Notes under the pieces: generated by a model
Told to the model about the DNA's origin: nothing
Seen by the model: the letters and a program-made list of their open reading frames with translations, nothing else
The model's database searches: none
Source of the DNA: an uncultured Actinoplanes sp.
GTDB lineage: Bacteria > Actinomycetota > Actinomycetes > Mycobacteriales > Micromonosporaceae
Length of the DNA: 21,697 nucleotides
Direction of reading: 5' to 3'
NCBI GenBank assembly: GCA_934667465.1
Contig: CAKUMG010000011.1
Coordinates: forward strand, 1-21,697
Made by a program: the position numbers and the translations under genes
Part shown: positions 2,915 to 21,644 of the stretch, piece by piece
Layout of the letters: each line of letters opens with the position of its first letter
How positions within the stretch are numbered: the stretch's first letter is position 1

Positions 2915-4933
2915 GTGCCGGTGGAGGTGGGTCAGACGACGAACGCTCTGGTGCGGCGTGTGCGCCTGCCCAACGACCGGCGGACCCCCGCGGCCGCCCG
3001 CGCCCTGGTCCGGTCCGTGCTCGAGGAGGCGGGCCTCGACGGGCTGGTCAACGAGGCGCTGCTGCTGACCACCGAGCTGTCCACCAACGCGGTCGTGCAC
3101 GCCGGCACCGAGCTCGACATCGAGGTCGCCGCCGACGAGGCCGGCCTCACGGTTACGGTCACCGACTTCGCTCCCGGCCCGGTCGAGGAGCTCGCCGTCG
3201 GGCCCCGCAACGACAAGACGGACATCGGCGAGGTGGCCGAGCGGGGTCGCGGGCTGCTGCTGGTCGACCACTTCGCCAGTCGCTGGGGCACCGTGCACGA
3301 GGGCACCGGCAAGGGGGTGTGGTTCCGCCTCGAGAGCCGACCGGGCGACCCGGTCGCGGCCACCGCGGCGCTGCCCGTGGCCGAGGGCGAGGCCACGCCC
3401 AGCGTCGGCGAGCTGACCACGCTGCTCCAGATCGACCCGGGGCGCACCACCGACGACGGCCTGGCCGACTTCGCCACCGAGCTGCTCGCCCGCCTGGCCC
3501 GGCTGACCGGCGCCAGCGGCGCGGTGGTCCGGCTCGACCGGGGCGAGAACGGCGGCCGGGGCCTGCTGGCCCGGCACGGGCGGGCACCGCGCGACGACGC
3601 GGCCACCATCCGGGTGCCGCTCTCGGTGCACAGGCCCTATTCGGGCGAGCTGGAGCTCGACGCCTCCCCCGACGGCTACGCCCAGCCGCTCGCCGTGATC
3701 GTCGCCGAGCGCCTCTCCCTGCACCTGGAGAACGACCGCCTGCGCCGCGCCGACCTGCGGCGGCAGACCTGGCTCACGTTCCTGGCCGAGGCGAGCGAGC
3801 TGCTCGCGCAGAGCCTCGACGTCAACCTCACGATGGCCCTGATCCCCCAGCTCGTGGTGCCCCGGTTGGGCCAGTGGTGCGCGGTGCACACCACCGACGC
3901 CTGGGGCCGCCTGCAGCTCTCGGCCGCCACGCACGCCGACGAGTCGGCCATCTCCCAGCTCTACGGCACGCTGTCCGAGACCGGCCCCGACTCGATCCTG
4001 TCCCGGCTCGAGGAGGCCTCGCGGCTCGGCCAGCAGGTCATGTTCGGCACGCCGTCCGAGGGCTTCGCGGTGCCGCTGGTCGCCCGGGGCCAGCGGCTCG
4101 GCACGCTTGCTGTGGGCCGCCACCCGCGGCACCGGCACGACGCCGACGAGGTCGCGGTGCTCGAGGACGTCGCCCGGCGCGCCGCGCTCGCCATCGACAA
4201 CGCGCGCATCCACGACGAGCGGCACAAGGTCGCGCGTACGCTGCAGGCCTCGCTCCTGCCCCCGGCCCTGCCGCACGTCGACGGCGTCGGGTTCGCCGCC
4301 GAATACGTCCCGACCGGCTCCGAGGTGGGCGGCGACTTCTACGACGTCGTCCCGTCCGGCGACGGCTGGCTGGTCGTGGTCGGCGACGTCTCCGGCAAGG
4401 GTGTCCAGGCTGCCACCGTGACGGGCCTGGTTCGCGACGTCATCCGGATCCTGGTCGACGACGGCAAGCCGATGACCGAGATCCTCTGCCGGGTCAACCG
4501 CACCCTGGTCCAGCGTGGCGGCGGCCGCTACTGCACCCTCGCGATGGCCTCGGTCACCCGCGACGGCGACGACCTGCAGGTCTGCCTCCACCTGGCCGGC
4601 CACGACCGCGCGGTCCTGGTGCGGGCCGACGGGCGCACGTCCTTCGTCGGCGAGGGCGGCACCGCCCTGGGCCTGCTGGAGAGCATCACCTCCCCCGACG
4701 CCGCGGTGACCCTGCGCCCCGGCGACTCGCTGATCTTCTACACCGACGGTGTGACCGAGCGGCGGCGCGGGCGCGAGCTCTTCGGCACCACCCGGCTGCG
4801 CCAGGCCGCCGAGCCCCTGGCCGGCTATCCGGCGGACGTGATGGCGGCCCGGCTGCGGTCCACGACGATCAACTTCTCGGTCGAGGAGCCGCGGGACGAC
4901 ATCGCGATCCTGGTGCTGCGCAACGACGCCTGA
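2915..4933 (+). CDS. RsbW-like ATPase / GAF / SpoIIE-type PP2C phosphatase fusion
   Basis: 672 aa. Residues about 10-145 form an anti-sigma-factor-kinase-type HATPase: the N box is TTELSTNAVVHA (Asn58), followed by a degenerate TDFAPGP and RGRGLLLVD. Residues about 165-275 are a weak GAF-like segment. Residues about 285-435 are a clearer GAF domain ending in LAIDNARI. Residues about 440-672 are a SpoIIE/RsbU phosphatase with TLQASLLPP, GGDFYD (472-477), GDVSGKG (490-496), FYTDGVTER and a terminal EPRDDIAILVL. Such proteins dephosphorylate anti-sigma antagonists, and the N-terminal domain resembles the kinase that phosphorylates them, so one chain may carry both opposing activities (inference). 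No membrane segments are seen. The gene is divergent from the poly-HAMP kinase, suggesting a joint pathway. The domain call is firm; the partner proteins are unknown. Confidence 0.92.
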   Translation: MPVEVGQTTNALVRRVRLPNDRRTPAAARALVRSVLEEAGLDGLVNEALLLTTELSTNAVVHAGTELDIEVAADEAGLTVTVTDFAPGPVEELAVGPRNDKTDIGEVAERGRGLLLVDHFASRWGTVHEGTGKGVWFRLESRPGDPVAATAALPVAEGEATPSVGELTTLLQIDPGRTTDDGLADFATELLARLARLTGASGAVVRLDRGENGGRGLLARHGRAPRDDAATIRVPLSVHRPYSGELELDASPDGYAQPLAVIVAERLSLHLENDRLRRADLRRQTWLTFLAEASELLAQSLDVNLTMALIPQLVVPRLGQWCAVHTTDAWGRLQLSAATHADESAISQLYGTLSETGPDSILSRLEEASRLGQQVMFGTPSEGFAVPLVARGQRLGTLAVGRHPRHRHDADEVAVLEDVARRAALAIDNARIHDERHKVARTLQASLLPPALPHVDGVGFAAEYVPTGSEVGGDFYDVVPSGDGWLVVVGDVSGKGVQAATVTGLVRDVIRILVDDGKPMTEILCRVNRTLVQRGGGRYCTLAMASVTRDGDDLQVCLHLAGHDRAVLVRADGRTSFVGEGGTALGLLESITSPDAAVTLRPGDSLIFYTDGVTERRRGRELFGTTRLRQAAEPLAGYPADVMAARLRSTTINFSVEEPRDDIAILVLRNDA

Positions 4934-5040: not shown

Positions 5041-5619
5041 ATGGATTCGACGGCGAAGACGCAGTACTACACGGCGACCAGCATCGACGGCTACATCGCC
5101 GACTCGGACAACTCGCTCGGCTGGCTCTTCGAGGTCGAGCAGGAGGAGCGCGACGAGGCCAACCCGTTCGGCGCCTTCTTCGCGGAGGTCGGGGCGTTCG
5201 CAATGGGTTCGACGACCTACGAGTGGGTGCTGGAGCACGAGGGCCTGCTCGACGACCCGCAGAAATGGAAATCGTTCTACGGCGACGTGCCGGCGTGGGT
5301 GTTCACCCATCGCGAGCTGCCGGCCATCCCGGGGGCGGCGCTGACCTTCGTGCGTGGGGACGTCCGCCCGGTCCACGAGGCCATGACCGCGGCCGCCGCG
5401 GGGCGCAACATCTGGGTCGTGGGCGGGGGTGAGCTGGCGGGGGCCTTCGCCGACGCGGGGCTGCTCGACGAGCTGATCCTGGGGGTGGCGCCGGTGACGC
5501 TCGGGGCGGGGGCGCCGCTGCTGCCCCGGCGGCTGACGGCCGCGCGGCTCGGGCTGACGGGGGTCGAGCAGGTGGGCCAGTTCGCCTACCTGCGGTATGC
5601 GGTGTCGGCTCCGGCCTGA
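5041..5619 (+). CDS. Dihydrofolate reductase / RibD C-terminal-fold protein, copy 1
   Basis: 192 aa, a single RibD_C/DHFR-like domain. The N-terminal TATSIDGYIAD is the family's signature first strand and loop. GSTTYEWVL, WVFTHRELP and the Gly-rich NIWVVGGGELAGAF (the nucleotide-binding part in this fold) follow, then APVTLGAGAPLLP near the end. The family includes NADPH-dependent reductases, but many members are uncharacterised and the substrate cannot be named; no folate or riboflavin gene is nearby. The ATG follows AGGGTGG with a short spacer. It is a clear paralogue of the next gene (roughly 60-65% identity by eye). Confidence 0.9.
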   Translation: MDSTAKTQYYTATSIDGYIADSDNSLGWLFEVEQEERDEANPFGAFFAEVGAFAMGSTTYEWVLEHEGLLDDPQKWKSFYGDVPAWVFTHRELPAIPGAALTFVRGDVRPVHEAMTAAAAGRNIWVVGGGELAGAFADAGLLDELILGVAPVTLGAGAPLLPRRLTAARLGLTGVEQVGQFAYLRYAVSAPA

Positions 5620-5857: not shown

Positions 5858-6493
5858 GTGGCGATGACTCAGTACTACACCGCGACCAGCATCGACGGCT
5901 TCACCGCCGACTCGGACGACTCGCTCGAGTGGCTGTTCGAGGTCGAGGAGGGGACGGACAACCCGTTCGGGGCGTTCTTCTCCAACATCGGGGCGTTCTG
6001 CATGGGCGCCACCACCTACGAGTGGGTGCTCCGCAACGACAACGTGCTCGAGGAGCCGGAGAACTGGCACGAGATGTACGGCGACGTCCCGTGCTGGGTC
6101 TTCACCCACCGGGAACTCCCCCTCGTCCCGGACGCCAACATCTTCATGGTCAGCGGCGACGTCCGCCGCGTCCACGAAGCGATGACGGTGGCCGCCCAGG
6201 GCCGCAACGTCTGGCTCGCCGGCGGCGGCGACCTGGTCGCGGAGTTCGCCGACGCGGGCCTCCTCGACGAGATCATCCTCGCCGTGGCCCCGGTCATGCT
6301 CGGCGTCGGCACCCGCCTGCTCCCCCGCCGCCTCACCGCCCAGCAACTGGCCCTGACCCACGTCTCCCAGATGGGCCAGTTCGCCTACCTCACCTACGCC
6401 GTGGGCAACCTCGCCAAGCTGGGCCGCCACCTGGCCGCCGACGCCCTGACCCGCCCCACGGGCATCATCGACCCAGCCATCACCCGCGCCTGA
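5858..6493 (+). CDS. Dihydrofolate reductase / RibD C-terminal-fold protein, copy 2
   Basis: 211 aa, the same domain as the preceding gene: TATSIDGFTAD at the N-terminus, GATTYEWVL, CWVFTHRELP, NVWLAGGGDLVAEF, and APVMLGVGTRLLP. It carries about 24 extra C-terminal residues (LAKLGRHLAAD...) absent from copy 1. The start is GTG 5858, with ATG 5864 as alternative. The GTG is preferred because a box shared with copy 1 lies at the same distance (39-40 nt) upstream. The ribosome binding site is weak. A 238-bp gap separates it from copy 1, so it probably has its own promoter. It is convergent with the FAD oxidase gene, 46 bp away. The substrate is unknown. Confidence 0.9.
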   Translation: MAMTQYYTATSIDGFTADSDDSLEWLFEVEEGTDNPFGAFFSNIGAFCMGATTYEWVLRNDNVLEEPENWHEMYGDVPCWVFTHRELPLVPDANIFMVSGDVRRVHEAMTVAAQGRNVWLAGGGDLVAEFADAGLLDEIILAVAPVMLGVGTRLLPRRLTAQQLALTHVSQMGQFAYLTYAVGNLAKLGRHLAADALTRPTGIIDPAITRA

Positions 6494-10746: not shown

Positions 10747-12384
10747 TCAACTGCCCAGCACGGCCGGGTAGCGCGGCGCCTTCAGGTCCAGCTTCTTCAC
10801 CGAGGCCGGGCCCTCGACGGCATAGACGACCGGCACCTCGACCGAGGCGTCGGCGCTCGGGAAGGCGATGCCGGAACCGTAGGTGAGCTCGAAGATGGTC
10901 GGGTCGGCCGCGGCCAGCGTCCCGCGGTCGGCGGGGTCCGAGATCCGCACCGGCTCGCCGAAGACGCGGGTCCCGTAGCCAGTCTCGGCACGGTAGTACA
11001 CCACGTTGTCCGGCCCGCGGTAGGCAAGCTGGAACGTGGCGTCGTACTGGACCGACAGGGGTCCGGTGGCGGGTGGCCCGCCGATGGACGTCCACTCCGC
11101 GGGGAAACCGTCGGGGTCGTACTCCGAGAACGGTTTGTAGACCACGGCCCCCTCGGTGGTGCGCGCGAACACCGCGAGGTCGATCCCGAAGCCCGCGACC
11201 TGGGCCGGTTCGTCCGCCAGGCCCTCGCCGCCGAGGTCGAGCCAGTTGTTGAGCCCGCCGGAGCCGAACGTCGCGGTCAGCAGCTTGCCACCGGTGGTCC
11301 GGACGAAGATCCGGGCACCGTAGCCCTGCTCGACGACCGTCGGCGTACCGGTCAGATCCGTCCCGCCGAGGTTGCGCCATGCGCCCACGGGCGCCTGCGG
11401 GTCCAGCTCGCTCTCCAATGCGTACCAGAGGGATCCGTCGCGGATGGCGAACGTGCCCACCCCGAAGCCCCCACCGCCGATCTTCTGCGCGGCCGGCTGC
11501 CCGGCCAGCGCGCCGCCGAACTCCTGGACCGCCGAGAACGTTCCCGAGGCCACGGCGTTCTCGTAGGTGAGGACGACGTCGCCCGCGGCCGCCTCCTGCG
11601 CGACCAGCTCGGCGCGCCCGTCCTGCCGGAACGCCGCCTGGGTCCGTCCGGTGTAGTTGCCGCCGATGGTCCGCTGGTAGACCGTCGCCGGCGGGTTCGT
11701 CCGCGGGCCGTTCAAGTCGTGGACGCGGATCACGTTGACCTGGCGGTCCGCGCCGACCCAGCTCAGGTAGTGCTGCTCGTACTGCTCGTGCAGCACGGTG
11801 ACCGGCTGCAGGCCGGTCCAGGGGCGCGCAACCGCGCGCGCCGAGTTGGCCGGCGGCAGGTAGACCTGGTCGTTCGTGACGTTCACCGAGGGCGAGCAGG
11901 TGTACTGGACGAGCTGCACGTTGTCCGCGACCGAGCGGCCCGGCACGTTCAGGCACTTGCCGCTGCGCGCCGAGACCAGCCGGATCGTCGGCTGCTGCGG
12001 CACGTCCACCACGTTCCAGAGCATGTTGGCCGCGTCGCTGCACGTGTACTAGATGATCAGCGCGTTGTCGGCGAGCGAGTTGCTGCTGACGTTGAGGCAC
12101 TTGCCCGAGCTCACGGACCGCACCTGGAAGGCACCGCCGGGACGGCGCACCAGCGTGAAGTTGTCGTTGACCGCGGTGGCCGAGCACCCGTACTGGACGA
12201 TCTTCGCGCTGTCAGCAAGGCTGTTGCCCTGCACGTTGAGGCACTTGTTGCTGTGCCCGAGCCGGATCGAGATGCCCTCGTCGGCGGGGAGTCCGGGGAT
12301 GTCGGGGTCGGCGTGGGCCGCGACGGCCGGAAGCAGGGCCGCGATCAAGGCGCCCGCGGCGGTGGCGATGGACAGGGTTCTCAT
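10747..12384 (-). pseudogene. Ricin-type lectin / beta-propeller secreted protein, interrupted by one amber codon
   Basis: A 546-codon frame, the third and most diverged of three tandem paralogues. It has a signal peptide (residues 1-26, ALIAALLPAVAAHA) and a ricin-type beta-trefoil with three copies of KCLNVxxxSxAD...QYxC. The C-terminal half has propeller-like repeats (GSLWYALE, WRNLGGTDLTGTPTVV) and the family's ...PAVLGS end. Codon 112 is TAG (12049-12051), where both paralogues have CAG (Gln) in ALIIQYTC. The frame before and after is otherwise intact, so one C-to-T change on the coding strand explains it. The ATG at 12024 downstream has no ribosome binding site and would lack a signal peptide. 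Readthrough, suppression or a sequencing error are alternatives. The start is ATG after GGGGGAGACC. Confidence 0.85.
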
Positions 12385-12400
12385 GGTCTCCCCCGTGGGT

Positions 12401-12431
12401 GCCCCTCCCCGCCGCGCGGGCGGGGAGGGGC
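12401..12431 (-). other. Intercistronic hairpin before the third lectin-like gene
   Basis: GCCCCTCCCCGCC (12401-12413) pairs perfectly over 13 bp with GGCGGGGAGGGGC (12419-12431), with a 5-nt loop. It ends 16 nt before the ATG and starts 15 nt after the previous stop codon. There is no T-run. Confidence 0.8.
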
Positions 12432-12446
12432 TGGACGTGACGGGAA

Positions 12447-14174
12447 TCAGCTACCGAGCCTGGCGGGCTGCTTCGGTGCGTCGAGCCGCTGCCGCTCGAT
12501 CTCCGGGGCGGCCGCCGCCTTGCGTTGGGCCGAGGCCGCAGCCCCCTCGACCGTGAGGACGACCGGGAAGTCGACGGTCGCCGCCGCGCTCGGGAAGGCG
12601 ATGGCGGGCCGCCGGCCGGTCGCGTCGGTGAAGGTGAACACGGTCGGGTCCGAGGCGGCCAGCGTCTCGGGGTCCGCGGGGTCGGAGACCCGGATCGGCT
12701 CGCCGAAGACCTCCGTGTTGTAGCCCGTCTCGGCGGCGTAGTAGACCGTGCCGTCGGTGCCGCGGAAGGACACGCTGACCACGCCGGTGACCGGGTCCTG
12801 TGCCGCCGACGGCGTGCCGGAAGCCGCCGGCGCGTCCAGCGTCAGCCAGTCCGTCGACCAGGCGCCGACACCCGTGATGAAGTCACCGTTCGTGACGCCC
12901 TTGTCCTGCTGCTTGTAGACGATGAAGCCGTTCGAGGTGCGGGCGAACACCGTGACCAGGTAGGGCGCGGAGGCGGTCGACACCGTGAACGGACTGCTGA
13001 CGATGCCGCCGCCGACACCGACGCCACCGAGCGACTGCCAGTCACCCAGCGCGCCGCCCGTGAAGTATGCGGTGAGCACCAGACCGGCGGTGGTCGTCAC
13101 GAAGACGCGCGGCCCGATCGAGCTCGGCATGATCGACGGGGTGCCGGTCAGGTTCGAGCCGGTCAGGGAGCCGCCGAGGTTGCGCCAGGCACCGGCCGGC
13201 GTCTGCGGGTTGTTCACGCTCTGCGGGGCGTACCAGAGCTGGCCGTCGCGCACCGCGAACAGGTACAGGCTGCCGTCGACGTCGCGGCCCACGCCGGGGC
13301 CGGTCGCCAGGGCGCCGCCGATGTCCTGCAGGCCACCGAAGACGCCCGTACGCGGAGCGGTCTCGTCGGTGAGGACGATGTCGCCGGCCGTGGCGTCGTG
13401 CGCGAGCGTCTGGACCCGGCCGTCCTGCAGCGTCGCGATCTGCGGGCGGCCCGTGTAGCCGGCGGTGTCGGACTCGGACCAGACCGGATCGGGGGCGCTC
13501 GGGTTCGTCCCCGTCAGGTCGAAGTCCGCCAGCACGTTGAGCTGGTTGGCGGCGTCGATCCAGCTGAGATAGACCGGACCCATGCCCTTCTGAATGGCGG
13601 CGACCGGCTGCTTGGTGGTGAACGGCCGGGCCACCGGGGTCGCCGAGTCGGCCGGCGGGAAGTAGACCTGCTCGTTGAGCTTCGTCGGGCTGCCGTTACA
13701 GGTGTACTGGATCAGCTGCACGTTGTCCGCTGTCGAGTTGCCCGGCACGTTGAGGCACTTGCCGCTGCGCGTCGAGACCAGCCGGAAGGTCGGACGGTCC
13801 GGGACCTCCACCACCCGCCAGAGGTTGTTCGCGGCGTCGCTGCAGGTGTACTGGATGATCAGCGCGTTGTCGGCGAGGGAGTTGCTCGTGACGTTGAGGC
13901 ACTTGCCCGAGCTCACCGACTGGACCCGGTAGGCACCGTTGCCCCGCGGCACCAGCTTGAACTTGTCGTTGGCGGCGGTGGCCGAGCAGCCGTACTGAAC
14001 GATCTTGGCATTGTCGGCGGTGCTGTTGCTCTGCACGTTGAAGCACTTGTTGCTGTGCCCCAGCTTGATCGGAATGCCCGCGGCGGGGGTGACGGCCGCC
14101 TGGGCCGCCACGGCCGGAAGCAGCGCCGCGATCAGGGTGCCCGCGGCGGCCGCAGCGATGGAGAGTTTTCTCAT
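12447..14174 (-). CDS. Secreted ricin-type beta-trefoil lectin with C-terminal beta-propeller-like domain, paralogue 2
   Basis: 575 aa. A Sec-type signal peptide covers residues 1-27 (TLIAALLPAVAAQA). Residues about 35-170 are a ricin B-like trefoil with three repeats. Each repeat has KCxNVxxNSxADNAxIxQYxC, giving six Cys as three probable disulfides; the QxW position is altered (KFKLV, LWRVV). Residues about 185-545 contain propeller-like repeats such as GQLWYAPQSV, AGAWRNLGG, WQSLGG and GTDGTVYYAAETGY, resembling the PLL/DUF346 lectin type; this is a fold-level guess. The tail ends PKQPARLGS, as in the third copy. No catalytic motif is seen, so sugar binding outside the cell is the likely role. 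GGGAGACCG precedes the ATG. Expected to be co-transcribed with its neighbours (gap 63 nt). Confidence 0.88.
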   Translation of the reverse strand: MRKLSIAAAAAGTLIAALLPAVAAQAAVTPAAGIPIKLGHSNKCFNVQSNSTADNAKIVQYGCSATAANDKFKLVPRGNGAYRVQSVSSGKCLNVTSNSLADNALIIQYTCSDAANNLWRVVEVPDRPTFRLVSTRSGKCLNVPGNSTADNVQLIQYTCNGSPTKLNEQVYFPPADSATPVARPFTTKQPVAAIQKGMGPVYLSWIDAANQLNVLADFDLTGTNPSAPDPVWSESDTAGYTGRPQIATLQDGRVQTLAHDATAGDIVLTDETAPRTGVFGGLQDIGGALATGPGVGRDVDGSLYLFAVRDGQLWYAPQSVNNPQTPAGAWRNLGGSLTGSNLTGTPSIMPSSIGPRVFVTTTAGLVLTAYFTGGALGDWQSLGGVGVGGGIVSSPFTVSTASAPYLVTVFARTSNGFIVYKQQDKGVTNGDFITGVGAWSTDWLTLDAPAASGTPSAAQDPVTGVVSVSFRGTDGTVYYAAETGYNTEVFGEPIRVSDPADPETLAASDPTVFTFTDATGRRPAIAFPSAAATVDFPVVLTVEGAAASAQRKAAAAPEIERQRLDAPKQPARLGS

Positions 14175-14191
14175 CGGTCTCCCATGGAAGT

Positions 14192-14222
14192 GCCCCTCCC
14201 CGCCACGACGGCGGGAAGGGGC
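14192..14222 (-). other. Intercistronic hairpin before paralogue 2
   Basis: GCCCCTCCCCGCC (14192-14204) pairs with GGCGGGAAGGGGC (14210-14222) with one mismatch and a 5-nt loop. It ends 17 nt before the ATG and starts 15 nt after the previous stop, the same geometry and nearly the same sequence as the hairpin at 12401. Confidence 0.8.
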
Positions 14223-14237
14223 AACGTGTGACGAGGG

Positions 14238-15923
14238 TCAGCTGCCGAGCTTGGCCGGCTGCTTGGGGGTGTCGAGCTTCTGTCGCTCGGCCTCCGGCGT
14301 GGCGGCCTTGCGCTGGCCCGCCGCGGCAGCGTTCTCGATAGTGAAGAGCATCGGGAGCTCGGAGTCCCCGGCGCTCGCGAAGGCGATCGCGGGCCTGGTG
14401 CCGCCCGCACCGGTGAAGGTGAACGCCGTCGGGTCCGACGCGGCAAGCGTCTCAGGGAACTCCGGGTCGGAGACCTGGAGCGACTCACCGAACTCGCCCG
14501 TGTTGTTGCCGGTCTCGGCGACGTAGTAGACGATGCCGTCGGTGCCGCGGTAGGTCACGTCCAGGGCGCCGGTCTCCGGGTTGTGCACGGCGGACGGCAG
14601 ACCGGCCGTCGGCACGTCCGCGGGCAGGCCGACCCAGCCCGACCACGCGCCGCCGTCGCTGCTGTCCTGCTGGCTGTAGCCGATGGCGCCACTGATGTTC
14701 CGGCCGAACAGCGTGGTCCAGCCGTCGGCGTCGGTGACCGCGGTCAGGCTGCCCGTCAGGTTGGCACCGTTCAGGGTCACCCAGTCGCTGAGCTGACCGT
14801 TGGCGAACACCGCCGTCACGACCCGGCCGGCCGTGTTGATCACGAAGACCTGGTAGCCCGTCGCGGTCGTCACCACGGCCGGCGTGCCGGTCAGGCCCGA
14901 GCCGCCGAGGCTGCGCCAGGCACCGACCGGCGCCTGCGGGTTGTTCACACTCTGCGGGGCGTACCACAGCGCGCCGTTGCGGATCGCGAAGGTGGCGAGG
15001 CTGCCGTTGGCGCCGCTGCGGGCCAGGTCGGGGCCGACGGCGAGCGAGCCGCCGATGTCGTAGAGGTTGCCGAACTGACCGGGGTCCCCCGGGATCTCGT
15101 CGACGAGGGCGACATCGCCGGCGTCGCCGTCGTGCACGAGCGCCTGGATCCGGCCGTCGGCGAGACGCTCGACCTGGGTCCGGCCGGTGTAGGCGGTGTC
15201 GCCCGTGGTCACGAGCCAGACGGGGTCGGGGGCGTTCGGGTTCGAGCCCTCCAGGTCGAAATCGGTCAGCAGGTTGAGCTGGTGGTCCGTGCCGATCCAG
15301 CTGAGGTGGACCGGGCCGGCGCCGTCCTGCGTGGCCGAGATCGGCTGCTTGGTGGTGAGCGGCCGGGCCACCGGGGTCGCCGAGTCGGTCGGCGGGAAGT
15401 AGACCTGCTCGTTGAGCTTCGTCCTGCTCGAGGTGCAGGTGTACTGGACCAGCTGCACGTTGTCGGCGGTCGAGTTGCCCGGCATGTTGAGGCACTTGCC
15501 GCTGCGCGTCGAGATGATCCGGTGGGTCGGGCGGCCGGGAACCTCGTCCACCCACCACAGGTTGTTCGCCGCGTTGCTGCACGTGTACTGGATGATCAGC
15601 GCGTTGTCGGCGATCGAGTTGCCCGTGACGTTGAGGCACTTGCCCGAGCTCACCGACTGGATCTGGTACGTGTCGTCACCCCGCGGCACCAACTTGAACT
15701 TGTCGTTGGCGGCGGTGGCCGAACATCCGTACTGAACGATCTTGGCGCTGTTGGCCGTGCTGTTGCTCTGCACGTTGAAGCACTTGTTGCTGTGCCCCAG
15801 CTTGATCGGAATGCCGGCGGCCGGCACGACCGCGGCCTGCGCGGCGATGCCCGGCAGCAGGGCGGCGCCCAGCACTCCGGCCGCCGAAGCGGCGACGATG
15901 GACAGACTTCTCCTGGTTGACAT
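14238..15923 (-). CDS. Secreted ricin-type beta-trefoil lectin with C-terminal beta-propeller-like domain, paralogue 1 (first in the cluster)
   Basis: 561 aa, closest to the 12447-14174 gene. The signal peptide (residues 1-31) is longer, with MSTRRSLS followed by a hydrophobic stretch and AQA. Residues about 38-175 are the three-repeat Cys-containing trefoil (KCFNVQSNSTANSAKIVQYGC and related units). Residues about 190-535 are propeller-like, with GALWYAPQSV, GAWRSLGGSGLTGTPAVV, WVTLNGANLTGS and GTDGIVYYVAETGN. The end is PKQPAKLGS. The best start is ATG after GGGGGAGCGC. It is the first gene of the three, so the cluster promoter should lie in 15924-16043. That gap holds a hairpin at 15939 but no promoter I can assign with confidence. 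Role inferred: extracellular carbohydrate binding. Confidence 0.88.
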   Translation of the reverse strand: MSTRRSLSIVAASAAGVLGAALLPGIAAQAAVVPAAGIPIKLGHSNKCFNVQSNSTANSAKIVQYGCSATAANDKFKLVPRGDDTYQIQSVSSGKCLNVTGNSIADNALIIQYTCSNAANNLWWVDEVPGRPTHRIISTRSGKCLNMPGNSTADNVQLVQYTCTSSRTKLNEQVYFPPTDSATPVARPLTTKQPISATQDGAGPVHLSWIGTDHQLNLLTDFDLEGSNPNAPDPVWLVTTGDTAYTGRTQVERLADGRIQALVHDGDAGDVALVDEIPGDPGQFGNLYDIGGSLAVGPDLARSGANGSLATFAIRNGALWYAPQSVNNPQAPVGAWRSLGGSGLTGTPAVVTTATGYQVFVINTAGRVVTAVFANGQLSDWVTLNGANLTGSLTAVTDADGWTTLFGRNISGAIGYSQQDSSDGGAWSGWVGLPADVPTAGLPSAVHNPETGALDVTYRGTDGIVYYVAETGNNTGEFGESLQVSDPEFPETLAASDPTAFTFTGAGGTRPAIAFASAGDSELPMLFTIENAAAAGQRKAATPEAERQKLDTPKQPAKLGS

Positions 15924-16043: not shown

Positions 16044-17591
16044 TCAGGCAGCGCGGCGGACGGCGACCACGGCGATGTCGTCGGCCTGCTGGCCGGAGCC
16101 CGCGAGATTCGCCAGGAGACGGTGGCAGAAGTCGTTGAGATCCGGCTCCACCTCGGCCGTGCAGGCGGCCAGGGCCGCCAGCCCGACGTCGATGTCCGCG
16201 TCGCGGCGCTCGATCAGACCGTCGGTGTAGAGGACCAGCGTGGCGCCCGGCGGCAGGGTGAACTCGAGATCGGCCGGGCGGGTGGCGTTGATGCCGAGCA
16301 GCGGGCCGCGCGGGTTGAGGAAGCGCACTCCCTCGCCGGGCACGTGCAGCAGCGGCGGCAGGTGACCCGCACTGGCCAGCCGGATCCGGCCGGTCGCGGG
16401 TTCCATGCTCAGCAGGCACAGCGTGGCCGACTCGGCGACCAGGACCGTGCGCATGAAGCGGTTGACGAGCTCGAGCACGGCACCGGGTGGATGACCTTCG
16501 ACCGCGTACGCCCGCACGGCGTGCCGCAGCTCGGCCATGACCGTGGCGGCGTGCAACGAGTGGCCCGCCACATCCCCGATCGCCACGAGCAGCCGGCCGT
16601 CGAGCACGGTGAGCTCGTAGAAGTCGCCGCCCACCTCGGTCTGCGCGCCCGCGGGCTCGTACAGCACCGCCCGGTCGACACCCGGGATGTCGGGCAGGCG
16701 CGACTGCAGGAGGCTGCGCTGGAGCGTGACCGCGATCCGGTGCTCCTCGTCGTAGGACCGCTGCGCCTCGACCGCCGCCGCGACCGCCTGGGACAGCTGG
16801 CGCAGCACCGGGAAACCGGGGCTCTGTGAGCTGGCGGGCACGGCGACGTAGGCGGGCGTCCGGTCGCTGCGCAGCCGGGCCGAGGCGACCGCGACCGACT
16901 CGCCCTCGGGCCACCGGGTCACCGCCCACGCGTCGGGCTGCTCCGTGCGTACGGCCGAGCCCACCGCCGTCTCGTGGTCGTCCAGGCCCCACGGCTGCAC
17001 GGTCGCGGGCTCGCCGGCGGCGACCGCGGCCAGGCTGTCCCCGTCGGCCGTCTCGGCGACCACCACGACCGGGCCGCCGAAGATGTCGTACGCGCCGTCG
17101 GCAGCCGCGGCGAGCAGCTCCGGGAGCGTGGGGGCCGAGTTGATCGCCAGCGTGGTCTCGGCCAGCTTCAGCATGCGGGCGGCGAGCAGCTCCGCGCGCT
17201 GCCGGGCCCGGTAGTAGCGGAGCACCGCCTGGGCGGTCGCGATCAGCTCGTCCGGCTCGATCGGCTCGACCAGGTAGGCGTCGGCGCCGCGGTTCAGGCC
17301 CTGCGTGCGGTCGACCACGTCGACGGCGTGCGCCGACACGTGGATGACGGGCAGGATGCCGTACGCGGGATTGGTCTTGATCCGCTCGCAGACCTCGAAG
17401 CCGTTCATGTCCGGCAGCTTGACGTCGAGCACCACCAGGTCGACGTCGATCTCGCCCTCGTCGAGCAGGGCCAGCGCCGAGCCGCCGGTCTCCGCCTCCA
17501 CCACCGTGAACCCGGCGCGCGACAGCCAGCTCACCAGCAGGTAACGCTTGGTGGCGCTGTCGTCGACGACCAGGACGGTGGCAGGGTTCAT
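16044..17591 (-). CDS. Receiver domain fused to SpoIIE/RsbU-type PP2C phosphatase
   Basis: 515 aa. Residues 1-125 are a receiver domain: acidic pair Asp10/Asp11, phosphoacceptor Asp56 (VVLDVKLPDMNGFE) and Ser86 (HVSAHA). The usually invariant Lys is replaced by Glu109 in AYLVEPIEPDEL. Residues about 150-285 are GAF-like. Residues about 290-515 are a PP2C with TLQRSLLQ, EVGGDFYEL, IGDVAGHSL, LASAGHLPPLL, LYTDGLIERRD and a terminal QADDIAVVAV, all metal-ligand motifs present. It occupies the RsbU position: a phosphatase that would dephosphorylate a STAS-domain antagonist. It starts inside the stop codon of the kinase gene (ATGA), so the two are translationally coupled and the kinase is the probable phosphodonor. 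It is the last gene of the operon. Confidence 0.92.
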   Translation of the reverse strand: MNPATVLVVDDSATKRYLLVSWLSRAGFTVVEAETGGSALALLDEGEIDVDLVVLDVKLPDMNGFEVCERIKTNPAYGILPVIHVSAHAVDVVDRTQGLNRGADAYLVEPIEPDELIATAQAVLRYYRARQRAELLAARMLKLAETTLAINSAPTLPELLAAAADGAYDIFGGPVVVVAETADGDSLAAVAAGEPATVQPWGLDDHETAVGSAVRTEQPDAWAVTRWPEGESVAVASARLRSDRTPAYVAVPASSQSPGFPVLRQLSQAVAAAVEAQRSYDEEHRIAVTLQRSLLQSRLPDIPGVDRAVLYEPAGAQTEVGGDFYELTVLDGRLLVAIGDVAGHSLHAATVMAELRHAVRAYAVEGHPPGAVLELVNRFMRTVLVAESATLCLLSMEPATGRIRLASAGHLPPLLHVPGEGVRFLNPRGPLLGINATRPADLEFTLPPGATLVLYTDGLIERRDADIDVGLAALAACTAEVEPDLNDFCHRLLANLAGSGQQADDIAVVAVRRAA

Positions 17592-18934
17592 GGCTCCACC
17601 GGCAGGCAGACGGTGAACGTGCTGCCCTCGCCCGGGGTGGAGGAGACCCGCAGCGCACCGCCGAGGATGCCGACCAGGCGGCGGGCGTAGGGCAGGCCCA
17701 GGCCGGTGCCCTTGCCGCTCAGCGCCTGACTGCCGGGCACCTGGTAGAACTCCTCGAAGATGCGCTCGGTCAGCTCGGGCGGGATGCCGGTGCCGGTGTC
17801 GGAGACCGTGAACTCGGCGTCGTCGCCCGTCCGCGTGACCCGGAGGCGCACCTCGCCCGCGGCGGTGAACTTGATCGCGTTGGTCAGCAGGTTGCGCAGG
17901 ACCTGGGCGAGCAGCACCTCGTCCGAGCGCAGCCGGGGCACGGCCGGCTCCTCCACCACGAAGTCGACCCCGGGCCGCGTGGCCAGCGGCCGCAGCGTGC
18001 CGCGCAGCTGCCCGAAGACCGCCTTCAGGTCGACCTCCTCCCAGTTCGGCTCGATCCGGCCGGCCTCCGCCTTGGCGAGGTCGAGCAGGTCGTTGACCAG
18101 GGTCAGCAGGTCGGTGGCCGAGCCGCGGATCAGCTCGACCTGGCGGCTCTGATCGCTGGTGAGCGGCTCGGAGGACCCGTCGGTCAGCAGCCGGCCGAGG
18201 CCGATGATCGCGGTGACCGGGGCGCGCAGCTCGTGGCTGACGTTGGCCAGGAACCGGCTCTTGGCCTCGCTGGCGGCGCGCAGCTGCACCGACTTCTCGT
18301 CCAGCTCGGCATAGAGGGCGACCACGCCGCGGTTCGTCTCCTCCAGCTCGTCGGAGAGCTGGTGGTAGAGCGCCATGACGCCGCGGTTCGTCTCCTCCAG
18401 CTCGGCGTTGAGCCGGGCCAGGTCGTCGCGCTGGGCCCGCACCTCGTCCAGGGCCGCGATGAGCTGCTGGTTCTGCACTGTCAGCTCGTCCAGCGGCGTG
18501 CCGGGGACGTGGTTGGCCAGGTGCGTGCGAATCTCCTCCATGCGGTCTCGGTTCAGCTCCGGAGCCGTGAGCGGCAGCCGCCGCGACATCCGCACCACCG
18601 TGCCGGACTCGCCATCGGTCACCTCCATCGTGTCGACCAGGCGGCGCACCTGCGTGAGCTGCGCGGCGAGCGGGGACGCGTCGCCCGGGGCGGCCTGGTA
18701 GGCCATCTCCACCTGGAGCGTGGGTACCCGTCCGGCCACCGTTGTGAACACGACGTCGGCGTCGCGTCCGGCGGCGACCACGAGCCGCCCGACCTCGCTG
18801 AGCGCCGTGGCGAGCCGCGTCTGGTCCTGCGACTCGAACCCGACCTCCCGGGCCACCTCGCGGCCGAGCTGCCGGACCGAGAAGACATCCTGCTCGGTAC
18901 GCAGACCGATGCGCATCAACATCCGCTCGGTCAT
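17588..18934 (-). CDS. Histidine kinase with an N-terminal RsbT-like domain lacking ATP-binding motifs
   Basis: 448 aa, no membrane segment. Residues 1-120 align by eye with the RsbT encoded two genes upstream. RTEQDVFSVRQLGREV matches SDQDVVRVRQLVRTL, and QVRRLVDTMEVTDGESGTVV matches GARRLVDEFDIDTEVGKGTT. The N-box Asn is lost (ALSEVGRLV) and no G1 or G2 box remains. Residues about 150-222 are a coiled coil containing ELEETNRGVxALY twice. Residues about 223-290 are HisKA with His234 (NVSHELRAPV). The HATPase_c has LRNLLTNAIKFT, DTGTGIP and GKGTGLGLPYARR, so the kinase itself looks active. ATGA overlaps join it to both neighbours. It probably senses RsbT/stressosome state and phosphorylates the REC-phosphatase; this is inference. 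Confidence 0.9.
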   Translation of the reverse strand: MTERMLMRIGLRTEQDVFSVRQLGREVAREVGFESQDQTRLATALSEVGRLVVAAGRDADVVFTTVAGRVPTLQVEMAYQAAPGDASPLAAQLTQVRRLVDTMEVTDGESGTVVRMSRRLPLTAPELNRDRMEEIRTHLANHVPGTPLDELTVQNQQLIAALDEVRAQRDDLARLNAELEETNRGVMALYHQLSDELEETNRGVVALYAELDEKSVQLRAASEAKSRFLANVSHELRAPVTAIIGLGRLLTDGSSEPLTSDQSRQVELIRGSATDLLTLVNDLLDLAKAEAGRIEPNWEEVDLKAVFGQLRGTLRPLATRPGVDFVVEEPAVPRLRSDEVLLAQVLRNLLTNAIKFTAAGEVRLRVTRTGDDAEFTVSDTGTGIPPELTERIFEEFYQVPGSQALSGKGTGLGLPYARRLVGILGGALRVSSTPGEGSTFTVCLPVEP

Positions 18935-19962
18935 GACGGCCCTGCCACGAGCACCCCGGCATCGTCGCGCCGGGTTCCCGCCTCGCGCAGCAGGGCGGTC
19001 GCGACGACCTGGGGCGAGTGACCGAAGGCCCCGGTGACGGTGGCCGTCTCCCAGCGGTCCACGAGCCCGTCGGTGTGCATGACGACCAGGGCGCGCGGCG
19101 GCAGCGGGTAGTCGTACTCGCGGATCTGGCGGCGCTGGTGGCCCGCGATGCCGGGCAGCGAGATCATGCCGCGGCGGCTGCCGTCCGTCCCGAGCACCGT
19201 GCCGGAGATGTTGCCCAGCCCCGCGTAGTGGACCACTTCGCGCTCGCGGTCGAGCTCGGCGACGGCCAGCGCCGCGCCGCGGGTGTGGCTGAGCGACCGG
19301 TGCAGCACCTCGACGATCGCGGCCGGCGGCGCGGCGGGGGCGGCCCGGAAGACGCGCGCGGCCTCCTGCCCGGCGGCGTGCGCGAGACCCCCGTGGCCCA
19401 GCCCGTCGCACATCAGCACCTGGCGGCGGCCCTCCACCTCCCGGATCGCGTACGCATCCCCGCTGACCGGCTCGCCCGTGATCGGCCGCGTGACGCCCGC
19501 CGCCCACGCCGGCTCGGGCGCCTCGCCGGGCCAGACCTGCACGGCCAGCACCGTGCCCCGCCCGGGCACCGAGTGCAGGTCGTACCACGATGCCTGGCGC
19601 ACGATCGCGCCCAGTCCGATGCCCAGCGTGCCGGCCGTCGAGTGGCCGTCACCGACCGCGCGGGTCACGTCGGCCATGCCGGGCCCGCGGTCCATCGCGA
19701 TGACCTCGACGCCCGCGTGCTCCCGGTCACGGACCGGCCGCAGCAGCATGACGCCCTCGTCGGCGTGCTTGACCAGGTTGCCCGCGGCCTCCGCGACGAC
19801 GATCGACAGGTTCGCGACGCGCTTTTCCGGGATGCCGAGCTCGGCGGCGAGGCGCTCGGCGGCGCGGCGGACCGTGGCGGCGCTGCTCGCGGCCTCGACC
19901 CGGAACCAGAGGCCCTCGTCGAGCAGGCCCTCGGGGAGTGACGCCACTGCGCCTCCGCTCAT
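18931..19962 (-). CDS. RsbT/RsbW-like ATPase fused to RsbX-like PP2C phosphatase
   Basis: 343 aa. Residues about 20-145 are a GHKL ATPase with N box VVAEAAGNLVKHA (Asn62), G1 DRGPGM (91-96) and G2 TLGIGLG (112-118). Residues about 155-343 are a short PP2C of RsbX type with GDA (168-170), CDGLGHGG (185-192), HTDGLVDRW and a terminal RRDDAGVLV. RsbX resets the stressosome by dephosphorylating RsbS and RsbR; here it is joined to an ATPase domain that seems intact. ATG 19962 is chosen because it forms an ATGA overlap with the rsbT stop, like the other junctions. GTG 19971 is also possible. It overlaps the kinase gene by 4 nt. Confidence 0.9.
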   Translation of the reverse strand: MSGGAVASLPEGLLDEGLWFRVEAASSAATVRRAAERLAAELGIPEKRVANLSIVVAEAAGNLVKHADEGVMLLRPVRDREHAGVEVIAMDRGPGMADVTRAVGDGHSTAGTLGIGLGAIVRQASWYDLHSVPGRGTVLAVQVWPGEAPEPAWAAGVTRPITGEPVSGDAYAIREVEGRRQVLMCDGLGHGGLAHAAGQEAARVFRAAPAAPPAAIVEVLHRSLSHTRGAALAVAELDREREVVHYAGLGNISGTVLGTDGSRRGMISLPGIAGHQRRQIREYDYPLPPRALVVMHTDGLVDRWETATVTGAFGHSPQVVATALLREAGTRRDDAGVLVAGPS

Positions 19963-20378
19963 CGACACCACTTGATCACGGTGATCGTGGTGCCCTTACC
20001 CACTTCGGTGTCGATGTCGAACTCGTCCACCAGCCGGCGCGCGCCGCTGAGCCCGAGCCCCATCCCGCCGCCGGTGGTGTAGCCATCGGTCAGCGCCAGC
20101 CCCAAGTCGGGGATGCCCGGGCCCTGGTCGGCAAAAACGATCTTGATGCCCGGGCGGCGGCCGTTGTCGACCCGGAGCACGTCCACGGTGCCACCGCCGC
20201 CGTAGACGAGCGTGTTGCGGGCCAGCTCGCTCGCCGCCGTCACGATCTTCGTCTGGTCGACCAGCGACAGCTTGACGGCGACGGCAAGGGTCCGCACGAG
20301 CTGCCGGACCCGGACGACGTCCTGGTCGGAGGCGACAGCGATCCGCTCGGCGGCGGCGACGCCCTCCCCGGTCGTCAT
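19959..20378 (-). CDS. rsbT: RsbT-type serine/threonine kinase (stressosome switch kinase)
   Basis: 139 aa, the normal RsbT length, a single GHKL ATPase domain. The N box is TAASELARNTL (Asn55), G1 is ADQGPGIPD (Asp84) and G2 is GGGMGLGLSG (103-112); the C-terminal GKGTTITVIKW is typical. RsbT is held by the stressosome, phosphorylates RsbS and RsbR on stress, then leaves to activate an RsbU-type phosphatase. The gene sits directly after rsbS with an ATGA overlap, as in known rsbRST modules. Confidence 0.95.
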   Translation of the reverse strand: MTTGEGVAAAERIAVASDQDVVRVRQLVRTLAVAVKLSLVDQTKIVTAASELARNTLVYGGGGTVDVLRVDNGRRPGIKIVFADQGPGIPDLGLALTDGYTTGGGMGLGLSGARRLVDEFDIDTEVGKGTTITVIKWCR

Positions 20379-20791
20379 GGGGCGGTGACCGCCGCTTCCT
20401 CGTCCTCGTCGCCGGCGCGGAAGTCGTCGTCGAACTCGGCACGCTGCCGGGCGAGCAACTCCATACCGAGCTCGACGTTGAGCGCCGTCCGGATGCCCGG
20501 CAGCGACAGGCCGAGCTCGACCAGGGTGATCGCGACCGCGGGCCGCATGCCGACGACGACGGTCTCGGCGTCGAGCACCCGCGACACCGAGGCGATGGTC
20601 GCCAGCGTCCGGCCGACGAAAGAGTCGACGATGTCGAGCGCGCTGATGTCGATGATCACACCGTGGCAGCCGGTCGCCACGATCTTGTCGGCCAGGTCCT
20701 CCTGGAGCTGGAGGGCGACCTGGTCCTCCATGTCGATCTGGATCGAGACCAGCAGGATGTCGCCGATCTTCAGAACCGGTACCCGCTCCAC
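20375..20791 (-). CDS. rsbS: RsbS-type STAS protein (stressosome core)
   Basis: 138 aa, one STAS domain. The phosphorylation motif DIVDSFVGRTL places the target Ser at residue 57, matching the conserved RsbS serine. The GVIIDISALD strand and GMRPAVAITLVELGL are typical. An acidic tail (FDDDFRAGDEDEE) extends beyond the usual end. The start is GTG 20791, 1 nt after the rsbR stop codon, which implies coupling. Confidence 0.94.
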   Translation of the reverse strand: MERVPVLKIGDILLVSIQIDMEDQVALQLQEDLADKIVATGCHGVIIDISALDIVDSFVGRTLATIASVSRVLDAETVVVGMRPAVAITLVELGLSLPGIRTALNVELGMELLARQRAEFDDDFRAGDEDEEAAVTAP

Positions 20792-20792
20792 G

Positions 20793-21644
20793 TCAGCGCT
20801 CCCGCCGCGTCGCCCCGGTGCTGCCGGTGAGGCGGAGCACGTGCCGCAGCGCGTCGGCCAGCGAGGCCTTGGTGGCGATGTCGCCGAACTCGATGCCCAG
20901 CGCCACGATCGTCTGGGCGATCTGCGGGCGGATGCCGGAGATGATGCAGTCCGCGCCCATCAGCCGGGCGGCCACGACAGTCTTGAGGACGTGCTGCGCG
21001 ACCTGCGTGTCGACCGCCGGGACGCCGGTGATGTCGATGATCGCGTACGGCGAACCGGTGTCCACCAGCGTCTGCAACAGGCGTTCCATGACGACCTGAG
21101 CCCGGGCCGAGTCGAGCGTGCCCACCAGCGGGACCGCGACGACACCCTCCCAGAGCTTGACCACCGGCGTCGACAGCTCGAGGAGCTGCTCGGCCTGGTC
21201 CGCGATCAGCGCCTCGCGCGCCCGGGTGTAGCTGTCGAAGGTGTAGAGCGCGGCCTGGTCGATGAAGGCGGAGAAGGCGACGAAGTCGCGCAGCGCGGCG
21301 GCATCCGCACCCTCGCCGGAGATCTTGAGCAACGCGTCCTTGAGCGCGAACACGCTGATCGCGGTCTCGTTGGCACTGAAGCCCTGCCGCGCCCGGCTCG
21401 CCGACAGCTCACCCAGCTGCGCCCGCAGCTCGGCAGCGGTGTCGTCGTCGAGCGCCAGGGCCCCGCCGGTCAGCGCGACCTGGAAGCCCTTCTGCAGGTC
21501 AAGGGTCTGCCGGTGCAGCTCCGCATAGCTGAGTCGCCCGCGCAGTGTCGCCGCGATCTGCTCGGTCCAGGACGCGACGACGGCGTCCTCGTTACCCTTG
21601 AGCAGATCTGCGAAGCGACTTCCCTCTTCCGAACTCAGCGCCAC
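20793..21644 (-). CDS. rsbR: RsbR-type stressosome sensor protein
   Basis: 283 aa. Residues about 8-145 are an all-helical RsbR N-terminal sensor domain. It shows no PAS, LOV or haem-ligand signature I can recognise, so the stimulus is unknown. Residues about 148-270 are a STAS domain with VPLVGTLDSARAQ, IIDITGVPAVDTQVAQHVL and SGIRPQIAQTIVALGI. Thr203 (VDT) matches one conserved RsbR phosphorylation site. The other falls at Ser169 (LDS) where B. subtilis RsbR has Thr, as far as I recall that sequence. The GTG start has GGGAGG 5 nt upstream. First gene of the operon seen here. Confidence 0.94.
   Translation of the reverse strand: MALSSEEGSRFADLLKGNEDAVVASWTEQIAATLRGRLSYAELHRQTLDLQKGFQVALTGGALALDDDTAAELRAQLGELSASRARQGFSANETAISVFALKDALLKISGEGADAAALRDFVAFSAFIDQAALYTFDSYTRAREALIADQAEQLLELSTPVVKLWEGVVAVPLVGTLDSARAQVVMERLLQTLVDTGSPYAIIDITGVPAVDTQVAQHVLKTVVAARLMGADCIISGIRPQIAQTIVALGIEFGDIATKASLADALRHVLRLTGSTGATRRER

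What the first reader, a model, noticed from the sequence alone, without database searches (positions are those of the whole stretch)
16044..21644. Stressosome module hard-wired to a two-component system in one overlapping operon
Six genes run rsbR-rsbS-rsbT-(ATPase/RsbX fusion)-(histidine kinase)-(REC-PP2C). Four junctions are ATGA overlaps (20375-20378, 19959-19962, 18931-18934, 17588-17591) and one is a 1-nt gap. In B. subtilis RsbT binds the N-terminus of RsbU directly; here the RsbU-like phosphatase has a receiver domain instead, and a kinase gene sits between. This suggests stressosome and phosphorelay inputs meet at one phosphatase. No sigma factor or RsbV/W pair follows, so the output is separate or new. 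RST-X modules are known in several phyla; the wiring proposed here is inference.
Basis: partly seen in the sequence, partly recalled or inferred. Interest (0 to 1): 0.8.

Follow-up and report, generated by a model that had tools for sequence, protein, structure and literature searches.

The report
RsbT-like domain on stressosome-linked kinase
A bacterial stress-sensing operon encodes a histidine kinase that carries its own worn-down copy of the stressosome's switch kinase RsbT joined to a conserved coil, which may explain how stressosomes signal to two-component systems.

The parts
20793..21644 (-). rsbR: RsbRD_N sensor domain (aa 11-107) + STAS (aa 163-264)
   Evidence: Pfam E 9.8e-21 and 6.4e-14; RsbR structures 7o0i (E 5.2e-35) and 9o4r (E 5.1e-29)
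20375..20791 (-). rsbS: single STAS domain with the conserved Ser57 (VDSF)
   Evidence: Pfam STAS; RsbS 6jhk E 2.2e-32; Ser57 invariant in 12 of 12 aligned RsbS
19959..20378 (-). rsbT: switch kinase with intact ATP motifs (SELARN, DQGPGI, GMGLGL)
   Evidence: Pfam HATPase; all three motifs in 93 of 93 RsbT of the loci set
18931..19962 (-). RsbT-like domain (about aa 20-145) fused to an RsbX-type PP2C (about aa 161-343)
   Evidence: Pfam HATPase_c_2 + SpoIIE; BLASTP to window RsbT E 5e-13; N-domain forms its own clan
17588..18934 (-). histidine kinase, predicted soluble: degenerate RsbT-like domain + coil + HisKA (aa 224-292) + HATPase_c (aa 338-447)
   Evidence: Pfam; highest Kyte-Doolittle mean over 19 aa is 1.04; AF2 model mean pLDDT 88.1, pTM 0.48, so domain arrangement unsure
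18572..18934 (-). degenerate RsbT-like domain of the kinase, aa 1-121; R21 and R25 kept, N-box Asn is Leu51, G1 box and lid lost
18287..18496 (-). coil aa 147-216 holding two copies of ETNRGVxALYxxL
   Evidence: predicted as part of one continuous helix 147-251; coil motif in 86 of 89 fifth-gene products
16044..17591 (-). REC (aa 6-119; acceptor Asp56, Glu109 at the canonical Lys position) + unassigned middle + SpoIIE-type PP2C (aa 331-513)
   Evidence: Pfam; REC residue counts over 82 sixth-gene receivers

Best explanation
This is a stressosome (RsbR, RsbS, RsbT, RsbX) whose output kinase carries a captured, worn-down RsbT domain. Shown here by sequence and predicted structure: the kinase's only detected input region is the RsbT-like domain plus a conserved coil leading into the HisKA helix. 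The domain belongs to one family, separate from RsbT and from the RsbT-like half of RsbX. In Actinomycetota it has lost its ATP site but kept the two alpha-1 arginines that correspond to RsbT's RsbU-binding R19/R23. Inferred: when stress frees RsbT from the RsbR/RsbS core, RsbT pairs with or displaces this built-in RsbT stand-in on the coil. The coil changes state, the kinase switches, phosphate (or another interaction) passes to the REC-PP2C, and that phosphatase acts on STAS antagonists elsewhere in the cell. RsbX resets the core. In short, the kinase contains in cis what the Bacillus RsbT-RsbU pair does in trans.
Against: No contact or phosphotransfer is demonstrated. Ten of 89 fifth-gene products lack the RsbT-like domain but keep the coil, so the domain is not essential to the coupling. 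RsbT D92, which pairs with the RsbU linker, is Gly in 9 of 10 intact and a gap in 65 of 67 other fifth-gene domains. The receiver's canonical Lys is Glu or Asp in 63 of 63 REC-PP2Cs, so classical receiver switching may not apply. One Streptomyces locus (L067) has RSTX with no output gene. Exchange with RsbT, docking on STAS domains and a purely structural role cannot be told apart here.
Confidence: 0.55

Rival explanations
1. The RsbT-like domain docks the kinase onto the stressosome core itself, on RsbS or RsbR STAS domains, and stress releases kinase and RsbT together.
For: The domain is RsbT-like, and in ten loci from Deinococcus, cyanobacteria, Acidobacteriota, a planctomycete, a gemmatimonad and two Pseudomonadota the ATP motifs are intact. 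One orphan RsbT-kinase in a Pseudomonadota genome (L123) is encoded divergently from an RsbR paralogue with no S, T or X detected in the 16 kb fetched.
Against: In Actinomycetota the nucleotide motifs and lid are gone. From memory of SpoIIAB/SpoIIAA, the STAS partner sits over that pocket, so a kinase-type grip on STAS would be lost there.
Confidence: 0.3
2. RsbT acts on the coil in trans, as on the RsbU linker; the fused RsbT-like domain is only a dimerisation scaffold or an inhibitory cap.
For: The coil is the most constant part: 86 of 89 fifth-gene products, including all ten without the domain, and the only such part in six of 13 strong Pseudomonadota modules. PMC12143880 reports RsbT working through the RsbU linker (abstract and passages).
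Against: The domain is retained in 79 of 89 with its arginine face conserved, more than expected of a mere spacer. The coil is not recognisably an RsbU linker (see Tried and rejected).
Confidence: 0.35
3. The kinase-phosphatase pair is only a neighbour with its own unknown input and is not controlled by the stressosome.
For: No interaction data; for Vibrio vulnificus, PMC9237108 (section 10) reports failure to get positive interaction results for RsbT and its downstream two-component protein VvD1.
Against: Tight linkage in whole genomes, overlapping genes, an RsbT-derived domain in the kinase and no other detected sensor.
Confidence: 0.1
4. HK to REC-PP2C phosphotransfer does not occur; the receiver is a phosphorylation-independent partner.
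For: Lys replaced by Glu (51) or Asp (12) in 63 of 63 REC-PP2Cs.
Against: Acceptor Asp in 82 of 82 sixth-gene receivers, acidic pair and Ser/Thr nearly always kept; the kinase H-box reads SHELRAP, and an H-box of this kind is found in 81 of 89 fifth-gene products, the other eight including PP2C and GGDEF outputs.
Confidence: 0.3

Closest known systems
RSTX modules with two-component output genes (Vibrio vulnificus VvD1-VvD2 and others, PMC9237108)
   Same: rsbR-S-T-X followed closely by HisKA/REC output genes; no sigma factor, no RsbU_N in most outputs
   Different: There RsbX is described as single-domain and RsbR as globin-type, and no RsbT-like domain in the output kinase is described in the section I read. 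Here RsbX has an RsbT-like half, RsbR is RsbRD_N-type, and the kinase carries an RsbT-derived domain plus coil
Bacillus RsbT-RsbU switch (PMC12143880, abstract and passages)
   Same: RsbT family domain, coil linker leading to the effector, SpoIIE-type PP2C at the end
   Different: RsbT acts in trans on RsbU_N plus linker; here the RsbT-like domain is fused in cis to a kinase (or PP2C or GGDEF), and Pfam finds no RsbU_N
Bacillus cereus RsbK-RsbY (search listings only; the receiver-PP2C nature of RsbY is recalled)
   Same: a histidine kinase feeding a receiver-PP2C
   Different: RsbK is a hybrid sensor kinase and no RSTX module is described in what I saw
SpoIIAB/RsbW anti-sigma kinases
   Different: those are stand-alone ATP-dependent kinases; this domain lacks the ATP motifs in Actinomycetota

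Membership tests
Stressosome RSTX module | RsbR (N-terminal sensor + STAS) and RsbS (STAS with phospho-Ser) | tested here: met
   (sequence only; phosphorylation not tested)
Stressosome RSTX module | RsbT with intact N, G1 and G2 boxes | tested here: met
Stressosome RSTX module | RsbX-type PP2C | tested here: met
   SpoIIE E 3.6e-10, but fused to an RsbT-like domain
Stressosome RSTX module | assembly into a large RsbR-RsbS complex | not testable with these tools
   needs biochemistry or cryo-EM
RsbT family (kinase N-domain) | sequence and fold of the RsbW/SpoIIAB/RsbT group | tested here: met
RsbT family (kinase N-domain) | ATP-binding motifs | tested here: not met
   absent in the window; none of three motifs in 65 of 89 fifth-gene products, intact in 10 of 89 from other phyla. 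So it is an RsbT-derived pseudokinase here, not an RsbT
RsbT family (kinase N-domain) | effector-face residues R19/R23 and D92 | tested here: inconclusive
   R19 and R23 equivalents kept, D92 not
RsbU phosphatase (sixth gene) | RsbU_N domain | tested here: not met
   Pfam reports only Response_reg and SpoIIE at E up to 1
Two-component pair | HisKA/HATPase_c kinase and receiver with acceptor Asp | tested here: met
Two-component pair | canonical receiver Lys | tested here: not met
   Glu or Asp in 63 of 63 REC-PP2Cs, window included
Two-component pair | phosphotransfer kinase to receiver | not testable with these tools
   needs an assay

The most novel reading that the evidence does not exclude
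One subfamily of stressosomes, seen here in seven phyla, speaks to its outputs through a third RsbT: a portable RsbT-derived adaptor domain plus ETNxGV coil that is fused to histidine kinases, PP2C phosphatases or a GGDEF enzyme. Free RsbT exchanges with it. Where the ATP site is intact it may itself be a regulated switch kinase; where it is dead (Actinomycetota) it is a pseudokinase. This would answer how stressosomes control effectors that have no RsbU_N.
Probability: 0.4. Interest if true: 0.8.

Novelty: new variant of a known kind. Interest (0 to 1): 0.62.

Why it matters
PMC9237108 (section 10) notes that most output proteins lack RsbU_N and can only suggest how RsbT might reach them. A conserved RsbT-derived domain and coil on such outputs names the parts to test. 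The Streptomyces version, with the domain fused straight to a PP2C, offers a two-protein assay. The family also looks like a pseudokinase in the making: intact in several phyla, dead in Actinomycetota. The presumed orthologue in Deinococcus radiodurans (DR_B0028; tag-to-gene match not verified) was among proteins raised during recovery from vacuum exposure (one passage of PMC6501615).

Tried and rejected
RsbU-linker idea: I compared the coil's TNRGV with the RsbT-contacting RsbU linker residues T89, R91, G92 and Q94 (PMC12143880 passages; the intervening B. subtilis letters are recalled). The one other RsbU looked at, from Lysinibacillus, reads SLLQKQ there by eye, so the likeness is not general and I dropped it.

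Own-genome search for STAS targets (and later SigB, RsbV/W): no genome is held for the window.

Full-length kinase fold search: the list was filled by kinase cores, residues 220-448, so I folded the N-domain alone.

Pfam on the N-domain: HATPase_c_2 is called there in the intact forms (7 of 7 scanned: L003, L004, L063, L065, L081, L082, L089) but not in the window nor in the three degenerate ones scanned (L005, L006, L058).

Literature: eight searches of open-access PMC listed no paper whose title or abstract start pointed to an RsbT-like domain in an output kinase; full texts were not read through. Subscription papers such as the 2005 and 2017 Pane-Farre reviews were not seen, so they could hold it.

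Rows left out: of 89 fifth-gene products, 77 entered the column counts; the ten without the domain and L030 and L092, whose frames look broken, were dropped. The domain tree used 25 of 93 loci and the PP2C tree 28 of 63 sixth-gene PP2Cs, six fifth-gene PP2Cs and four others, all chosen by me.

Not done: complex prediction (no multimer tool); cyanobacterial phylum count (unanswered, not repeated).
Full report
What is there. Pfam gives RsbRD_N+STAS, STAS, a HATPase, HATPase_c_2+SpoIIE, HisKA+HATPase_c and Response_reg+SpoIIE. RsbR and RsbS match solved stressosome proteins. The closest named relatives are Actinoplanes and allied genera. No whole genome is held for the window.

How general it is. 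With 12 plasmid loci picked from two searches and the window that makes 93 loci. The fifth gene could be read in 89. The four others are L026 and L064 (contig ends), L048 (no X gene found before the contig ends) and L067, which has RSTX followed by what looks by eye like an unrelated dehydrogenase gene. Of the 89, 79 have the N-domain region (L030 in a broken frame) and 10 do not; 86 have the coil motif, including all ten without the domain. A sixth REC gene follows in 82: REC-PP2C in 63 and REC-HK in 19. By record titles, fifth genes with the domain come from Actinomycetota, Pseudomonadota, Deinococcota, Cyanobacteria, Acidobacteriota, Planctomycetota and Gemmatimonadota, the last three from metagenome-assembled genomes.

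Samples drawn across groups. Pseudomonadota: 299 genomes, among them the centre G006, known to have a module. RsbS at E 1e-15 or better is in 24. All 13 with RsbS at E 1e-55 or better carry R-S-T-X with the fused X and a fifth gene: seven with N-domain and coil, six with coil only (the coil of G602 is seen, not by my motif). Of the 11 weaker ones I read ten (not G565); one (L125) has an N-type fifth gene, and no N-domain kinase or coil was seen in the other nine. So the trait marks one subfamily of stressosomes. Eight full-length N+coil places were found in these genomes; seven have RsbT just upstream and the eighth (L123) lies opposite an RsbR paralogue. Five coil matches were found with a 45-residue query, all 1.5-2.4 kb downstream of rsbS. 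Micromonosporaceae (family of Symbioplanes lichenis): 58 of 121 genomes, with RsbT 1375-1772 bases away in 57; in the 58th (G720) RsbT is on another contig (the sample includes two genomes known to have it). Actinomycetota at large: 3 of 296, one of them the chosen centre (only up to ten candidates per genome were scored). Streptomyces: 16 of 150 genomes, 17 places at E 2.1e-39 or better, the centre G003 included. In 13 genomes picked because they hold a module, all 28 matches of the N+coil profile fall in one region per genome.

Three RsbT families. A tree of 75 domains from 25 chosen loci separates RsbT (94/94), the RsbT-like half of RsbX (100/100) and the fifth-gene domain (95/89). Some branches are long (F_L070 2.42) and only 147 columns were usable. 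RsbT keeps all three ATP motifs in 93 of 93. The fifth-gene domain is judged intact in 10 of 89 (two Deinococcus, two cyanobacteria, two acidobacteria, one planctomycete, one gemmatimonad, two Pseudomonadota): eight with all three motif tests positive and two (L008, L065) with the third missed. It shows none of them in 65, scattered motif matches in four, and is absent in 10. By column, the N-box Asn is present in 93 of 93 RsbT, 92 of 93 RsbX-N, 10 of 10 intact fifth-gene domains and 1 of the other 67 (L070, Pseudomonadota); the G1 Asp in 93, 93, 10 and 2 (L011, L070). Those 67 are Actinomycetota apart from L006 and L070.

The face that is kept. PMC12143880 (passages) lists RsbT R19, R23 and N24 as implicated in RsbU binding. 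On Lysinibacillus RsbT these are R19, R23, N24. The R19 column is Arg in 93 of 93 RsbT, 93 of 93 RsbX-N and 77 of 77 fifth-gene domains. The R23 column is Arg in 92 of 93 RsbT, 10 of 10 intact and 57 of 67 other fifth-gene domains (5 Lys, 4 Gln, 1 Ala), but Glu, Thr, Ala and others in RsbX-N. In the window these are R21 and R25. The N24 column varies even within RsbT. Against the reading: D92, which pairs with the RsbU linker, is Asp in 84 of 93 RsbT but Gly in 9 of 10 intact and a gap in 65 of 67 other fifth-gene domains.

Outputs change, the input stays. In Streptomyces plasmids L005 and L012, and chromosomal loci L132 and L133, the same N-domain and coil are joined to a PP2C with no kinase. 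The L005 domain sits beside the kinase-linked L058 domain in the tree (97/92). Its PP2C nests with the sixth-gene PP2Cs of Streptomyces (97/95), while the coil-only PP2C of Planosporangium L043 (also Micromonosporaceae) nests among Micromonosporaceae ones with less support (88/84). The PP2Cs of the more divergent L011, L128 and L129 do not nest there. So kinase and receiver seem to have been cut out at least twice, with input and phosphatase joined directly. In an acidobacterium (L081) the output is GGDEF (E 8.2e-44). This is the best evidence that kinase and REC-PP2C form one series path.

The receiver. Over 82 sixth-gene receivers the acceptor Asp is present in all, but the canonical Lys is Glu (51) or Asp (12) in all 63 REC-PP2Cs. 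In the 19 REC-HKs it is His in 11, Gln 3, Ala 2, Glu 1, Lys 1, gap 1. Phosphotransfer should not be taken for granted.

What is known. PMC9237108 (section 10 read; other passages) describes RSTX modules followed by PP2C, c-di-GMP or HisKA/REC genes. It says most outputs have no RsbU_N and suggests that RsbT phosphorylates the kinase. PMC12143880 (abstract and passages) reports RsbT working through the RsbU coil and proposes exchangeable N-terminal domains, including RsbU_N on kinases. Neither, in what I read, has an RsbT domain on the output. Eight searches of open-access papers listed none that I recognised by title or abstract start. PMC6501615 (one passage) names kinase DR_B0028 among proteins higher after vacuum exposure and says DR_B0028 and DR_B0029 are thought to be co-regulated with an antisigma-factor operon; that DR_B0028 is the L004 kinase is likely but not checked.

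Mechanism. Shown by sequence and predicted fold: RsbT ancestry of the domain, its conserved face, its lost ATP site in Actinomycetota, its linkage to RSTX, and exchange of outputs. Inferred: RsbT freed by stress pairs with or displaces this built-in copy at the coil and switches the kinase, which then drives the REC-PP2C. The rivals (docking on STAS, RsbT acting on the coil alone, receiver used without phosphate) stay open. They are separable by simple binding and kinase assays.

Noticed in passing
window 2-2803 (-) and 2918-4933 (+): A divergent pair: a four-HAMP, GAF histidine kinase running off the window end, and an RsbW-like HATPase-GAF-PP2C protein; another kinase/phosphatase pair in the same window.
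   Followed up: partly
window 10747-15923 (-): Three neighbouring related genes with ricin-B-type lectin domains (below Pfam's cut-off in the first, whose frame looks split from 12049-12384), likely secreted; they lie just downstream of the stressosome operon.
   Followed up: partly
L123 5018-7521: An orphan RsbT-domain kinase whose N and G1 boxes look intact by eye, encoded opposite an RsbR paralogue with no rsbS, rsbT or rsbX detected in the 16 kb; the genome also has a full module (L124).
   Followed up: partly
L155 3153-3632 and L156 3533-4108: In more distant modules the RsbT-like half of RsbX seems to be a separate gene between rsbT and a short rsbX, so R-S-T-T'-X.
   Followed up: no
L081 3796-4923: Acidobacterial fifth gene is intact RsbT-like domain + coil-like helix + GGDEF.
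   Followed up: partly
L141, L142, L143: A second kind of RSTX module in Micromonosporaceae, with hybrid kinases that have a coil-like match but no RsbT-like domain.
   Followed up: partly
sixth-gene receivers of 63 loci: Receiver Lys replaced by Glu or Asp throughout, a conserved charge reversal whose meaning is unknown.
   Followed up: partly
L067 9739-13141: A Streptomyces RSTX module followed directly by a gene that looks by eye like a 3-hydroxyacyl-CoA dehydrogenase, with no output gene.
   Followed up: no
L030 9612-12242; L092 10184-11804: Fifth-gene frames that look broken or fused (kinase helix running into PP2C in L092); could be assembly errors.
   Followed up: no
window 5043-5619 and 5858-6493 (+): Two neighbouring reductase-like genes; the second matches RibD_C, the first was only seen as an open frame that looks similar.
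   Followed up: no
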